Shown: positions 59,973 through 63,208 of the stretch, in pieces | How the letters are laid out: every line of letters starts with the position of its first letter | How positions within the stretch are numbered: the first letter of the stretch is position 1 | Source: Brevibacillus laterosporus DSM 25 | Lineage (GTDB): Bacteria > Bacillota > Bacilli > Brevibacillales > Brevibacillaceae | Assembly: GCF_002706795.1 (NCBI RefSeq) | Contig: NZ_CP017705.1 | Coordinates: 3,819,501 to 3,883,500 of the forward strand | Reading direction: 5' to 3' | Length of the DNA: 64,000 nt | Position numbers and translations under genes: made by a program | Notes under the pieces: generated by a model | Database searches by the model: none | Told to the model about the DNA's origin: nothing | The model's input: only the letters and a program-made list of their open reading frames with translations

Positions 59973-60512
59973 TTAAATATCGTTAGGTGTTAAAGAGCGT
60001 ACATTTACTCTTGCCTTTACAGCACTACCTTTTGTTCCTGCAAATCTAAGTCTATACTCGCCCTCGCCGTAATATTTAGATGCTTTTGGAACTACATACT
60101 CGGCTACTTCACCAGTTTTCACAGGCTCGATACCCCAAATTTCTGTACCGTCCTCAGAAAGAAGTTCTAGTCGGAAACTTTTGCTTCCTGTATTCTCTAC
60201 GTGTACACGTAGGTGTGGGTACTTGCCATTATGAGAAGAGTAATCGAAGACAAAGGAACCTTGACCTGATTTATAGCTCACGTCCTCATCTTTAGCAATT
60301 GAAACGTAAGGTGATATAGTCTTTTCATCTATAGATTTTTCACTTACTACAGCACTAGAAGCCTCTGGCTTAGTAATATTATCAGAATTAACATTAGTAG
60401 AAACATTTGGAGAAACGGTAGAAATACTTGGATGGGCGTTAGCACCAGTGACTACTACGGCTGTAACTATTAACGCAACAGGAACGGAAAATAATTTACT
60501 TATTTTTTTCAT
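59973..60512 (-). CDS. Secreted beta-sandwich protein, unknown
   Basis: The 179-residue protein has a signal peptide (residues 1-26, ending GANA), a Ser/Asn/Thr-rich linker to residue 70, and a beta-rich C-terminal domain (YPHLRVHVENTGSKSFRLEL, TGEVAEYVVPKASKYYGEGE, RLRFAGTKGSAVKARVNV). The domain recalls extracellular jelly-roll modules. GAGGATAA precedes the ATG. It is a single gene in the accessory segment. Confidence 0.65.
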   Translation of the reverse strand: MKKISKLFSVPVALIVTAVVVTGANAHPSISTVSPNVSTNVNSDNITKPEASSAVVSEKSIDEKTISPYVSIAKDEDVSYKSGQGSFVFDYSSHNGKYPHLRVHVENTGSKSFRLELLSEDGTEIWGIEPVKTGEVAEYVVPKASKYYGEGEYRLRFAGTKGSAVKARVNVRSLTPNDI

Positions 60513-60593
60513 TGTTTTTATCCTCTTTCCCTTTATATAAGTATATTTTACTAAAAATCTAACTATTTTACATTATTAGGAATACATATCATT

Positions 60594-60862
60594 CTAGTTG
60601 TCTTCAATGAATTTCTGAAACACGGCTTTATTTGTTCTAAAAGGTTTTCCGTACAGCTTATTCACATGTGCGACAACTATTTTTTCAATAAAAAATATTT
60701 TTTCCCCTTTGAACGCAAGGGCATGATAAACTTGAATGGAGCATTTTTTAAATGCTTGATATGGGGTGTTCCAAAGCTTTCTGAGGGCCAATGGGAACAT
60801 CCCGTTTTTATTACCTTTTTAGCTTCCTTCTCTCGACATCTATCGTCGTCCCATGCTAACAT
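60594..60862 (-). pseudogene. Small gene with an apparent frameshift
   Basis: ATG 60862 with AGAAAGGAG upstream opens 61 codons (LAWDDDRCREKEAKKVIKTG, then CSHWPSESFGTPHIKHLKNA). Near a GGGGAAAAAA run a second frame takes over, reading EKIFFIEKIVVAHVNKLYGK to a stop at 60594. One extra base in the run would fuse them into about 90 residues. Recent decay or a homopolymer error are both possible. The family is unknown. Confidence 0.5.
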
Positions 60863-61032
60863 CTTTCAACTCCTTTCTGTGAATATTCCTTCTTTGCTAT
60901 CCTCCTTTCTCTGGCAACCACAAAAATGATAAAAAAATGTAATTTCTATATTTTGTGTGGATTACCATTTGTTAGCTTAATTATATATCAAGATATACAA
61001 ATTCTAAGAAAAAATTTTTCTGTTAATTTTTT

Positions 61033-61063: not shown

Positions 61064-61198
61064 TTACCAACCTTCACCATATCCATTTGTTGATACACTT
61101 TGTTCTGTAATTGTTGTTGAGATTGGTGTGTCAAAACTCATTCCGATAAAACCTAATAAGGACAGAATCATTAGTGAGGAAATTATAGCTTTTTTCAT
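61064..61198 (-). CDS. Candidate signalling pre-peptide (44 aa)
   Basis: The frame starts at ATG 61198 with AAAGGGTGAT nine bases upstream and overlaps the last 68 bases of the regulator gene in another frame. Residues 1-about 21 form a Sec signal (KKAIISSLMILSLLGFIGM). The rest is small and polar and ends STNGYGEGW. Size, signal sequence, overlap with an XRE-TPR gene and a C-terminal hydrophilic tail match pre-peptides of RRNPP systems (PapR, NprX, AimP, Phr). The active form is probably the last 5-10 residues. Confidence 0.75.
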   Translation of the reverse strand: MKKAIISSLMILSLLGFIGMSFDTPISTTITEQSVSTNGYGEGW

Positions 61199-62480
61199 TT
61201 TGGATATCACCCTTTGCCATAATATTAATAAACATCTCTTTGTGTTTTTCAGAAGGGGTAAATTGATAATGCATAAGAATGATACGTTTTAGTCGCTCTA
61301 CATTTTTGAAATAGAGTGCCAATTGTAGAGCCTCGATGTTGTAATGGAATCCTAAATCGTTTTTCCCCCTTACACAATAATATGTAGATAACGCTTGAAA
61401 TAATCTTAGTTTATATTTCTGATTAAGGATATCCGTCTTATTGGATAGCTGGTCAATTTCTTGTTTGTGTTTTTGTAAAAGCTCATCAATGTTGTGAATC
61501 ATTTCTTTTTGGAGATATGATTCTATTGCTGCGGGTAAAAAAAGAAATAATTTTTTGGGATCAGGAGAGATTAGCTTTATATGTTCATCAATATACTCCA
61601 CATGTCCCATATCAACGTGTATCAACGTTTCATTAATTCTAGCTAGTTGAGCATACTCTTCACTATAAGAAGAATATTCCTTCACTACAAGAAGGGCATT
61701 TTCATAATCTTTCAAACCCTGATAGCTAAAAGATTCATACAACAAAGCCTCTGCAATATATTTCTTGTTATTCTGTGATGTAGCTAATTCCTTTAACTCT
61801 TTTGAATACTTCAACAATTTATCCCAATTCTCAACGACGTTATAAAAAGTCAATATTTTGTAATATGCCTCAAATCTATATTCTTCTGGAAGTAAAGGGA
61901 GGTATTCAAAAAGTTGATGTAAAGCTTCAAAGCCAGAAACAGGTAGGTCTACATCTCTTGCTATTAAAAAACGTTTAAAATATGCGATAGCTAATTGTAC
62001 ACTACGTGTCGTACTGTTGGATATCACAATTTCATACAACGGTAAGCTGTAGTTTCGTTGGTCAGAGGAAAAAATATGCTCTGCCATCCTAAATGTCTTG
62101 TCAAGAATCCTTTTTCTATCTGTTTCTTCGTTGATAAAATACATGATTTTCTTTGTAATATCATATCTTTCTGCTTTAATGCAACCGATGAAAAAGTCAG
62201 CGGTTTTTATAGGGGACATACTCCCAGATTCATTGAAGCATTCACCTAGAAAATCTTCATAGAAGGTATCTTTTTGTAATCCCAAGGCTTCTGTCATCGA
62301 ATCTAATTGGGGCAATGTCATCTTCCTTTTGGAATTCAATATTTGGCTGATGATAACTGAGTCAATTCCAGTAGCTAGTCCAAGGTCTTTTCGTTTCCAC
62401 CCTTTACCATCAAGTGCTTCTTGTAAACGTTGGCGTAATTCTATCTGCGCACCTTCATAATTGTAATCTAAGACGTGCAT
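61131..62480 (-). CDS. XRE-TPR (RRNPP-like) peptide-responsive regulator
   Basis: The 449-residue cytoplasmic protein has an N-terminal XRE helix-turn-helix (about 10-68: ELRQRLQEALDGKGWKRKDL, SVIISQILNSKRKMTLPQLD). About 370 residues of alpha-helical repeats follow with TPR character (ALLYESFSYQGLKDYENALL, RLFQALSTYYCVRGKNDLGF). This is the layout of PlcR, NprR, Rgg and AimR regulators, though the sequence matches none I can name. AAGGGGAT precedes the ATG. A 44-codon secreted-peptide gene overlaps its 3' end. The genes it controls are unknown. Confidence 0.85.
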   Translation of the reverse strand: MHVLDYNYEGAQIELRQRLQEALDGKGWKRKDLGLATGIDSVIISQILNSKRKMTLPQLDSMTEALGLQKDTFYEDFLGECFNESGSMSPIKTADFFIGCIKAERYDITKKIMYFINEETDRKRILDKTFRMAEHIFSSDQRNYSLPLYEIVISNSTTRSVQLAIAYFKRFLIARDVDLPVSGFEALHQLFEYLPLLPEEYRFEAYYKILTFYNVVENWDKLLKYSKELKELATSQNNKKYIAEALLYESFSYQGLKDYENALLVVKEYSSYSEEYAQLARINETLIHVDMGHVEYIDEHIKLISPDPKKLFLFLPAAIESYLQKEMIHNIDELLQKHKQEIDQLSNKTDILNQKYKLRLFQALSTYYCVRGKNDLGFHYNIEALQLALYFKNVERLKRIILMHYQFTPSEKHKEMFINIMAKGDIQNEKSYNFLTNDSVLIRFYRNEF

Positions 62481-62546: not shown

Positions 62547-62660
62547 TTAGATAATATTGTAAATAAAAATGAAAGTAAATGAGTAATGTTTTTAAAAATA
62601 TTAAGTACCTATAGGTTCTTAAATACCGCAGGAGAGAGTAGAAAATCTACTCATCAATGC

Positions 62661-62894
62661 CTATTGTTCCCGTTCCCATTCGTAGAGGTGTTCCATGCGG
62701 AAGTTTGGCATGTACATCTGAATGATAGAAGTAATGGAATACATAGCTTCTGGAGACATCAGTTTGGTATTAGTGGCATAATGCGAGATCATTCTAGCTG
62801 AAAAACCTGTTCGTCTCGCTAACTCAGCTTGTTTCATACCAATAAGATTCAGAACGGGTTGTAATAGGCATTTCCCACGTATGTAAGATGCCAT
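62661..62894 (-). CDS. Small XRE-type DNA-binding protein
   Basis: The 77-residue protein is little more than one XRE helix-turn-helix (GMKQAELARRTGFSARMISH, then MSPEAMYSITSIIQMYMPN) with a short acidic C-terminus EWEREQ. ATG 62894 has AGGGA ten bases upstream; ATG 62903 is too close to it. It resembles Cro-like regulators of mobile elements. It is co-oriented with the RRNPP-like cassette 180 bases away, but no joint role is shown. The 62895-63208 stretch shows no gene. Confidence 0.75.
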   Translation of the reverse strand: MASYIRGKCLLQPVLNLIGMKQAELARRTGFSARMISHYATNTKLMSPEAMYSITSIIQMYMPNFRMEHLYEWEREQ

Positions 62895-63208
62895 TACATT
62901 CATTCCCTATAGGTTACTATTTTGACTCTGTCGTCTAGTGATAATTTAAGCAGGTAAGTGATCTTTCCGTTCACTACATAAAAGTGTGTATTACAAGGGT
63001 AGATGTTCAAGAAATATAATTGTCCTGTTGAGATTAGTATATTACGTAATTTGTCATTACGAAACTGACATTTTACAATTTGTGCAAATGTTTATTTGTG
63101 ATGACGATAGAGTAATGAAGCAATATCTCTTATAGAAGGATCATAATTTCTAAAACTCTGAACCAATCACATCCTTGTTACACTAGTCAATCGGGCACGC
63201 AGTTGCTA

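What the first reader, a model, noticed from the sequence alone, without database searches (positions are those of the whole stretch)
61064..62480. Self-contained peptide-signalling cassette: XRE-TPR regulator overlapping a 44-codon pre-peptide
A 449-residue protein with an XRE head and TPR-like body is followed, in another frame and overlapping its last 68 bases, by a 44-codon gene with a good ribosome binding site, a Sec signal and a tail ending NGYGEGW. A terminator begins right after the peptide stop. This is the gene order of RRNPP quorum-sensing systems. I do not recognise the peptide tail, whose Gly-Trp ending differs from PapR, NprX, AimP and Phr tails I know. The system is probably novel at family level.
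Basis: partly seen in the sequence, partly recalled or inferred. Interest (0 to 1): 0.85.

Follow-up and report, generated by a model that had tools for sequence, protein, structure and literature searches.

The report
Brevibacillus peptide-signalling cassette with swappable cargo
A bacterial gene pair, a DNA-binding receptor and the tiny secreted peptide it probably senses, forms a quorum-sensing cassette that is repeated in several copies with different signal words and different secreted-protein genes behind it; it is a new branch of a known family (relatives of AloR-AloP), not a new kind of system.

Summary
In detail: a 449-aa HTH-TPR regulator (61131-62480, -) overlapped by 68 bp, in the +1 frame, by a 44-codon pre-peptide (61064-61198, -), with a terminator after its stop. 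It is not chance: all 10 close copies found (3 in this genome, 4 in genomes read as B. laterosporus, 1 B. halotolerans plasmid, 2 viral contigs) carry the frame, all ending GEGW, with 0 non-synonymous differences in those four codons. Five distant relatives repeat their terminal hexamer twice in one pre-peptide, which points to a 6-residue signal, here GYGEGW, in the register of the published AloP13 signal SHGRGG.
Best reading: an RRNPP-type quorum-sensing pair acting on its own locus and probably on a downstream secreted-protein gene, whose type varies (five types in 10 copies). A hybrid copy shows that the peptide travels with the C-terminal half of the receptor.
'Novel at family level' is not supported: the regulator is homologous to a receptor of Paenibacillus polymyxa ATCC 842, the strain in which AloR was defined. 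It is a separate Brevibacillus clade whose overlap lies outside the default distance of the published detector. Export, binding and regulation are untested, and no operator common to all copies was found.

The parts
61131..62480 (-). 449-aa receptor/regulator: XRE-type HTH (about 8-65), TPR-like superhelix (about 74-423), disordered C-terminal tail (424-449) that nearly coincides with the overlap
   Evidence: HTH below Pfam's cut-off; HTH and some TPR in relatives; AlphaFold2, pLDDT 86.5, pTM 0.79
61064..61198 (-). 44-aa pre-peptide MKKAIISS...NGYGEGW, +1 frame relative to the receptor, 68-bp overlap
   Evidence: conserved in 10 of 10 copies; selection
61067..61084 (-). inferred mature signal, C-terminal hexapeptide GYGEGW
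   Evidence: hexamer length inferred from five relatives whose pre-peptide carries the same hexamer twice; AloP13 mature peptide SHGRGG (PMC7425212)
61044..61061 (-). intrinsic terminator right after the peptide stop
   Evidence: visible in the eight copies aligned, shifted and less regular in L066
62535..62563 (-). sigma-70-type promoter of the receptor-peptide operon, TTTACA-17-TATGAT
   Evidence: conserved; 8 of 10 copies match a strict form, which the window copy misses by one base in the spacer
62603..62620 (-). palindrome AAGAACCTATAGGTACTT, candidate operator
   Evidence: at 0-1 mismatch only at the three cassettes of this genome; but its core is in only 4 of 10 copies
60590..61030 (-). 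conserved downstream element of about 400 bp with an invariant ATATATAATTAA (TATAAT at 60980-60985); function unknown, possibly leader/promoter of the cargo
   Evidence: nucleotide-level rather than protein-level conservation
60677..60862 (-). 61-codon ORF MLAWDDDR... inside the element; probably not a conserved protein
   Evidence: ATG and at least 58 codons in 7 of 10 copies, pN 0.142 against pS 0.165 over those seven
59973..60512 (-). 179-aa protein with a signal-like N-terminus, no family match above cut-off; inferred cargo/target gene of the cassette
62661..62903 (-). 80-aa XRE protein upstream; also whole in viral contig L111 and cut short in L002; not a constant part

Best explanation
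A self-contained RRNPP-type quorum-sensing cassette. The receptor and, by translation of the overlapping +1 frame, the 44-aa pre-peptide are made from one transcript that ends at the terminator. The pre-peptide is exported and trimmed to its C-terminal hexapeptide GYGEGW; the hexapeptide is taken back up (as in RRNPP systems, by an oligopeptide permease: recalled), binds the TPR groove, and changes DNA binding by the HTH. The targets are inferred to be the cassette's own promoter and the gene for a secreted protein about 0.6-1 kb downstream. Paralogous copies with other hexamers (SFGEGW, SVGEGW in the same genome) would be separate channels. Shown: gene anatomy, co-conservation, selection on the hexamer, HTH plus TPR-like fold in a model, exchange of the DNA-binding half against the peptide/TPR half. 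Inferred: export, processing, uptake, binding, and what is regulated and in which direction.
For: 10 of 10 close copies keep the overlapping pre-peptide with a GEGW end. Hexamer pN 0.159 against pS 0.527 and GEGW pN 0, while the linker before it is nearly free (0.475 against 0.589); receptor 0.177 against 0.592. Five relatives carry the same hexamer twice in one pre-peptide (NVGEHG, SSGDRG, DIGERG, EDGPGW, HGGIGW), the first copy in all five directly after an alanine that could end a signal peptide. L111 is a hybrid: N-terminal segments 96/91% to the SFGEGW receptor, C-terminal segments 94/97% to the SVGEGW receptor, and it carries the SVGEGW peptide. AlphaFold2 model: HTH plus TPR-like superhelix, with Rap and PlcR-PapR structures among the 50 Foldseek matches shown. 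In 10 of 10 copies the next co-directional ORF of at least 100 aa begins with a signal-like segment (judged by eye).
Against: No binding or expression data. Foldseek matches are weak (TM by query length 0.35-0.39 to Rap, 0.26 to PlcR; eukaryotic TPR proteins rank first) and the model rests on five sequences. No operator common to all copies: the palindrome core is in 4 of 10, and no motif is shared between the receptor promoter and the downstream element above shuffles. The window peptide lacks a clean signal-peptidase site. Five receptors of G002 have no pre-peptide. Only 3 of 5 genus genomes carry a GEGW cassette.
Confidence: 0.8

Rival explanations
1. An arbitrium-like device: the peptide reports prophage density and the receptor steers lysogeny against lysis; chromosomal copies are remnants of prophages.
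For: Viral contig L110 carries the cassette between anti-repressor/repressor-like genes and holin/lysozyme genes; L111 is alike (RecT-like gene and GH25 lysozyme tested, the rest by eye); L062 and L066 lie next to a GH25 lysozyme gene. A published structure tree puts AloR, subfamily 08 and AimR in one clan (PMC12700828, passages).
Against: The constant neighbour in all ten copies is a gene with a signal-like start, not a phage gene; in the stretches read around the window copy, L063 and the plasmid copy L034 I saw no lysis genes (by eye).
Confidence: 0.12
2. A toxin-antitoxin-like or bacteriocin pair: the small hydrophobic peptide is itself a membrane toxin or bacteriocin and the regulator only controls it.
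For: Small hydrophobic peptide coupled to an XRE regulator; some HTH matches of the family are antitoxin-like.
Against: Selection acts on the last six residues while the linker is nearly free; hexamers are repeated within relatives' pre-peptides; tail type follows the TPR half of the receptor, which a free toxin would not need.
Confidence: 0.05
3. The receptor-peptide pair is real, but the downstream secreted-protein gene is not its target; the cassette regulates only itself or distant genes.
For: No shared motif found between the receptor promoter and the downstream element; a terminator separates them; the element has a TATAAT box of its own.
Against: 10 of 10 copies have such a gene next in line although types and genomic sites differ, and the element between is strongly conserved DNA.
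Confidence: 0.3

Closest known systems
AloR-AloP of Paenibacillus polymyxa / Paenibacillaceae (PMC7425212)
   Same: HTH-TPR receptor followed by a short pre-peptide with a hydrophobic N-terminus; C-terminal 6-aa signal (AloP13 SHGRGG) with glycines at places 3 and 5; many paralogues per genome; reported from Brevibacillus too; the AloP13 peptide lowers expression of the spo0E-like gene next door
   Different: own clade, apart from the clade with the P. polymyxa ATCC 842 receptor; GEGW end; longer overlap (68 bp; AloR-like Brevibacillus pairs range from 50 bp to none); the next larger genes look secreted, not spo0E-like
RRNPP subfamily 08 of Paenibacillaceae (PMC10075063, PMC12700828)
   Same: Paenibacillaceae in the NCBI sense; found on chromosomes, plasmids and phages; HTH plus TPRs
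   Different: its peptides widely carry a DPG motif; GEGW peptides do not. Pairs with a DYDPGY tail exist separately in the own genome, G003 and G004
AimR-AimP (arbitrium; features recalled)
   Same: HTH-TPR receptor with secreted hexapeptide, some copies in prophages
   Different: different peptide; no aimX-like arrangement recognised; a secreted-type gene follows
PlcR-PapR, NprR-NprX, Rap-Phr
   Same: TPR receptors of secreted peptides; Rap and PlcR structures appear among the Foldseek matches
   Different: no sequence match to a solved RRNPP receptor in the lists up to E 1; different peptide tails (recalled)

Membership tests
RRNPP(A) quorum-sensing systems | receptor of 250-500 aa with N-terminal HTH and C-terminal TPR or TPR-like domain | tested here: met
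   449 aa; HTH below Pfam's cut-off in the window protein but HTH_26 at E up to 0.01 in 14 of 20 aligned members; TPR-like helices in the model; no TPR family for the window protein up to E 1, TPR families in a few relatives
RRNPP(A) quorum-sensing systems | adjacent short pre-peptide with basic N-terminus, hydrophobic core and variable C-terminal signal | tested here: met
   no signal-peptide predictor available
RRNPP(A) quorum-sensing systems | pair distance -60 to +400 bp (RRNPP_detector default) | tested here: not met
   -68 in 8 of 10 copies, -92 and -95 in 2; this is a software default (PMC10075063 section 15), not a biological definition
RRNPP(A) quorum-sensing systems | peptide is secreted, matured, re-imported and binds the TPR domain | not testable with these tools
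   needs experiment
AloR-AloP | homology to AloR receptors of P. polymyxa ATCC 842 | tested here: inconclusive
   homologous (tblastn E 2e-9, 23% over 94%) to a receptor on the ATCC 842 plasmid, but I could not check that this receptor is one of AloR1-16, and AloR13 was not found
AloR-AloP | falls inside the clade of the P. polymyxa receptor | tested here: not met
   clade with L035 has 12 of 41 rows at 100/100; the GEGW rows form another clade of 10 at 100/100
AloR-AloP | pre-peptide of 32-50 aa with C-terminal signal | tested here: met
   40-45 aa in 10 copies; hexamer inferred, not measured
RRNPP subfamily 08 | DPG motif in the peptide | tested here: not met
   no DPG in any of the 10 GEGW pre-peptides; the published motif is 'widespread', not universal

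The most novel reading that the evidence does not exclude
A mobile, two-way modular signalling cassette: one half of the receptor plus its peptide defines a 'pherotype' that is exchanged as a unit against the DNA-binding half, and a conserved 400-bp segment serves as platform on which ever-changing secreted cargo genes are placed under density control, spreading through chromosomes, a plasmid and prophages of Brevibacillus.
Probability: 0.3. Interest if true: 0.7.

Novelty: new member of a known kind. Interest (0 to 1): 0.5.

Why it matters
It adds a signalling subfamily that the default settings of the published detector would probably skip (overlap above 60 bp, TPRs of the window protein not recognised by Pfam), and it gives a natural experiment: ten sister cassettes with five hexamers (GYGEGW, SFGEGW, SVGEGW, IYGEGW, TYGEGW), a natural hybrid receptor, and variable cargo. 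That makes peptide specificity in this group directly testable with synthetic hexapeptides, and the 68-bp overlap suggests a receptor tail shaped by the signal sequence encoded across it.

Tried and rejected
Rejected: chance overlap (selection, 10 of 10 copies); novelty at family level (homology to a P. polymyxa receptor, same hexamer register); membership in subfamily 08 (no DPG); the 61-codon ORF as a real small protein (pN about equal to pS; stop, lost ATG or frame change in 3 of 10 copies); the downstream element as a structured RNA (1 of 72 predicted pairs compensatory; fold z -1.34, 11 of 100 shuffles fold at least as well; no Rfam match up to E 0.1 other than two tRNAs); the palindrome as a general operator (4 of 10); a shared motif between the two promoters (13-14 of 18 matches direct, 13-15 inverted, shuffles 12-15).

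Led nowhere: a search for AloP13 (SHGRGG) in 100 genomes of one Paenibacillaceae-like genus gave 10 matches in 9 genomes; four of the ten read SHGRGG (L145, L148, L152, L153), and none of the ten loci holds a family receptor, so they look like chance. First genome-contig scan found nothing, the second one locus. Viral scans with L112, L037 and A5 gave no new relative (66 returned the query's own contig; 67 and 71 none). The DNA query was taken at wrong coordinates (a downstream stretch instead of the element) and repeated correctly. One search missed nine of ten files because of how they are stored; one search did that work. One search's loose pre-peptide rule gives 61 of 77 but with some wrong picks (for example L111, L023, L029, L054, L057, L058); one search used a stricter rule.

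Full report
What is there. On the minus strand of the window a 449-codon ORF (61131-62480) is overlapped over its last 68 bases by a 44-codon ORF (61064-61198) in the +1 frame; a terminator hairpin with a T run follows (61061-61044). The window lies at 3,819,501-3,883,500 of a single-contig 5.4-Mb genome. Its genus-mates include G004, whose contig C76 has the length and the match of a named Brevibacillus laterosporus MSSRFCCT15 contig, and G003, which has the same match at the same coordinates as plasmid pBRLA07 of B. laterosporus LMG 15441; I therefore read them as these strains.

Copies. The genome holds three close copies (100, 68 and 62% identical to the window receptor) and more distant ones. 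G003 has three, G004 one, a B. halotolerans plasmid one (L034), and two IMG/VR viral contigs one each (L110 and L111): ten distinct copies (L109 is G004's copy again). 4 of 5 genus genomes have a match at E up to 1e-10, but G001 has none and G002 only more distant ones, so 3 of 5 carry a GEGW cassette. All ten copies carry the overlapping pre-peptide, ending GYGEGW (1), SFGEGW (2), SVGEGW (3), IYGEGW (2), TYGEGW (2). The overlap is 68 bp in eight copies; in two the receptor stop lies further on and the overlap is 92 or 95.

Selection. Pooled over all pairs of the ten copies: receptor pN 0.177, pS 0.592; last six codons 0.159 and 0.527; last four codons 0 and 0.371 (39 differences, all at third positions); the linker before the hexamer 0.475 and 0.589. 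So the protein sequence of the tail is kept while its linker drifts. Pairs are not independent, and no significance test was made.

Length of the signal. In five relatives the pre-peptide contains the same six residues twice, once early and once at the very end: NVGEHG (L019), SSGDRG (L043), DIGERG (L044), EDGPGW (L042), and HGGIGW (Brevibacillus phage Emery, L037); in all five the first copy directly follows an alanine that could end a signal peptide. More than one pheromone inside a pre-peptide is known from Rap-Phr systems (PMC11343458, passages). The published AloP13 signal SHGRGG (PMC7425212, passages) has glycines at the same places 3 and 5 as GYGEGW. From this I infer the hexamer GYGEGW.

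Receptor. Sequence searches give only weak HTH matches, TPR families appear in a few relatives, and the AlphaFold2 model from five sequences (pLDDT 86.5, pTM 0.79) shows an HTH followed by an all-helical TPR-like superhelix; residues 424-449, nearly the part encoded across the peptide frame, are of very low confidence. Foldseek finds TPR proteins, eukaryotic LGN/Pins first, with Rap structures (8rsu, 8rsv, 8rtc, 3q15, 4i9c, 3ulq, 4i1a) and PlcR-PapR7 (3u3w) among the 50 shown, at low TM-scores. The best match in the viral library, S5MC02 (E 1.2e-14), carries no name at hand but has the length of phage Emery's gp60. The second-look library was not available.

Peptide and TPR half move together. 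Splitting the receptors into four segments, the six pairs with the same hexamer share 73-98% in the third segment and 76-97% in the fourth. The 39 pairs with different hexamers share at most 73% and 71% there; the 73% pair is GYGEGW/IYGEGW, which differ in one residue. L111 is a clear hybrid: 96 and 91% to the SFGEGW receptor of this genome in the first two segments, 94 and 97% to its SVGEGW receptor in the last two, with the SVGEGW peptide. This is what is expected if the C-terminal half reads the peptide.

Surroundings. Upstream, a TTTACA-17-TATGAT promoter is conserved. The palindrome AAGAACCTATAGGTACTT is unique to the three cassettes in this genome at up to one mismatch, but only 4 of 10 copies have its core, and these share upstream DNA, so it is weak evidence for an operator. 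Downstream of the terminator lies an element of about 400 bp: six further copies in genus genomes are 80-89% identical to the window's, the plasmid copy 85%, and the viral copies align as well. It contains an invariant ATATATAATTAA and a 61-codon ORF that is intact in 7 of 10 copies and whose pN (0.142) about equals its pS (0.165), the latter far below the receptor's pS; the constraint is on nucleotides, or the stretch has been homogenised. No RNA structure is supported. What it does is unexplained.

Cargo. In 10 of 10 copies the next co-directional ORF of at least 100 aa (start 0.5-1.0 kb after the receptor stop; in L070 the ORF begins at a TTG and the likely gene start is further in) has a signal-like N-terminal segment by eye. 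Types: C92 YiiX-like in L063 (above Pfam's cut-off) and L062 (just below), with L068 and L070 alike by eye; M23 peptidase in L111; a 170-177-aa group without a Pfam match in the two members scanned (L034, L066, L110); the window's 179-aa protein without a family; and a gene in L067 that stands as two ORFs. In G003 a homologue of the window cargo stands behind the 3' part of the element without receptor or peptide in the 3.1 kb read, with transposase-like ORFs (by eye) upstream. Mobile-element genes lie near several copies: GH25 lysozyme at L062, L066, L110, L111, integrase at L067 and L109/L070, an IS605-type OrfB at L034. PADLOC gave only weak HTH-type or marginal matches.

Relatives and names. 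In an even sample of 299 Bacilli genomes 49 have family members at E up to 1e-12, in four of the families sampled, all but two of the 49 in f1 and f4. A tree of 41 receptors, chosen by me from 71 of fitting length, places the ten GEGW receptors in one clade (100/100) and the P. polymyxa ATCC 842 receptor with Paenibacillus-type and Brevibacillus receptors, mostly of xHGxGG type, in another (100/100). The five G002 receptors next to the GEGW clade (support 83/44) have no detectable pre-peptide; some sit in tandem behind a receptor that has one. PMC7425212 (sections 6 and 7 and passages) reports AloR-like receptors from Brevibacillus; PMC10075063 (abstract, sections 7 and 15, passages) reports AloR and a novel cluster 8 from B. 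laterosporus LMG 15441 and uses a default distance of -60 to +400 bp; PMC12700828 (passages) gives the DPG motif of subfamily 08; of PMC9765709 I saw three passages. Their supplements could not be read here, so I cannot say whether GEGW receptors are already listed. Paper searches for RRNPP with Brevibacillus, AloR/AloP, B. laterosporus with quorum sensing and pheromone, AloR with Brevibacillus, GEGW with quorum sensing, and Brevibacillus with arbitrium showed me no description of this peptide (listings only, apart from the papers named; subscription journals are mostly not held).

Verdict. A real peptide-signalling cassette, of a known kind, in a new clade. The bold part, a modular cassette with interchangeable pherotype and cargo, is supported by one hybrid and by the constant position of varied secreted-type genes, but its function is untested.

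Noticed in passing
window 60590-61030 (-) and homologous stretches in L062, L063, L066-L068, L070, L034, L110, L111: A 400-bp element more conserved at the nucleotide level than the synonymous sites of the receptor, without supported RNA structure or coding selection; unexplained.
   Followed up: partly
window 60594-60667 (-); L098, L102, L105, L106, L107: Parts of the block CTGTACGGAAAACC...AAAGCCGTGTTTCAG at the end of the element recur elsewhere, several times close before ORFs with a signal-like start or near TPR-receptor-like or spo0E-like genes, including plasmid pBRLA07.
   Followed up: partly
L029 (G002:C20:247579-248868): A receptor of this family whose own C-terminus continues in frame into a hydrophobic segment and the tail DFGIGY, as if the pre-peptide were fused to the receptor.
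   Followed up: no
L006, L025, L030; L069, L106: Separate receptor-like ORFs with pre-peptides ending DYDPGY, DPGH or NPGH, resembling the DPG-type subfamily 08.
   Followed up: no
L037 (Brevibacillus phage Emery, 1254-1896 and 2950-4433): The phage carries both an AgrB-family gene followed by a 38-aa ORF and a receptor of this family with pre-peptide HGGIGW...HGGIGW: two possible peptide-signalling systems in one phage.
   Followed up: partly
L103 (G003:C1, around 235052): A homologue of the window's 179-aa cargo follows the 3' part of the element without receptor or peptide in the 3.1 kb read; transposase-like ORFs lie upstream.
   Followed up: partly
L005, L016, L024: Longer pre-peptides (73 aa) with DNGAKP near the start and DNGARPK at the end, beside receptors of the same family.
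   Followed up: no
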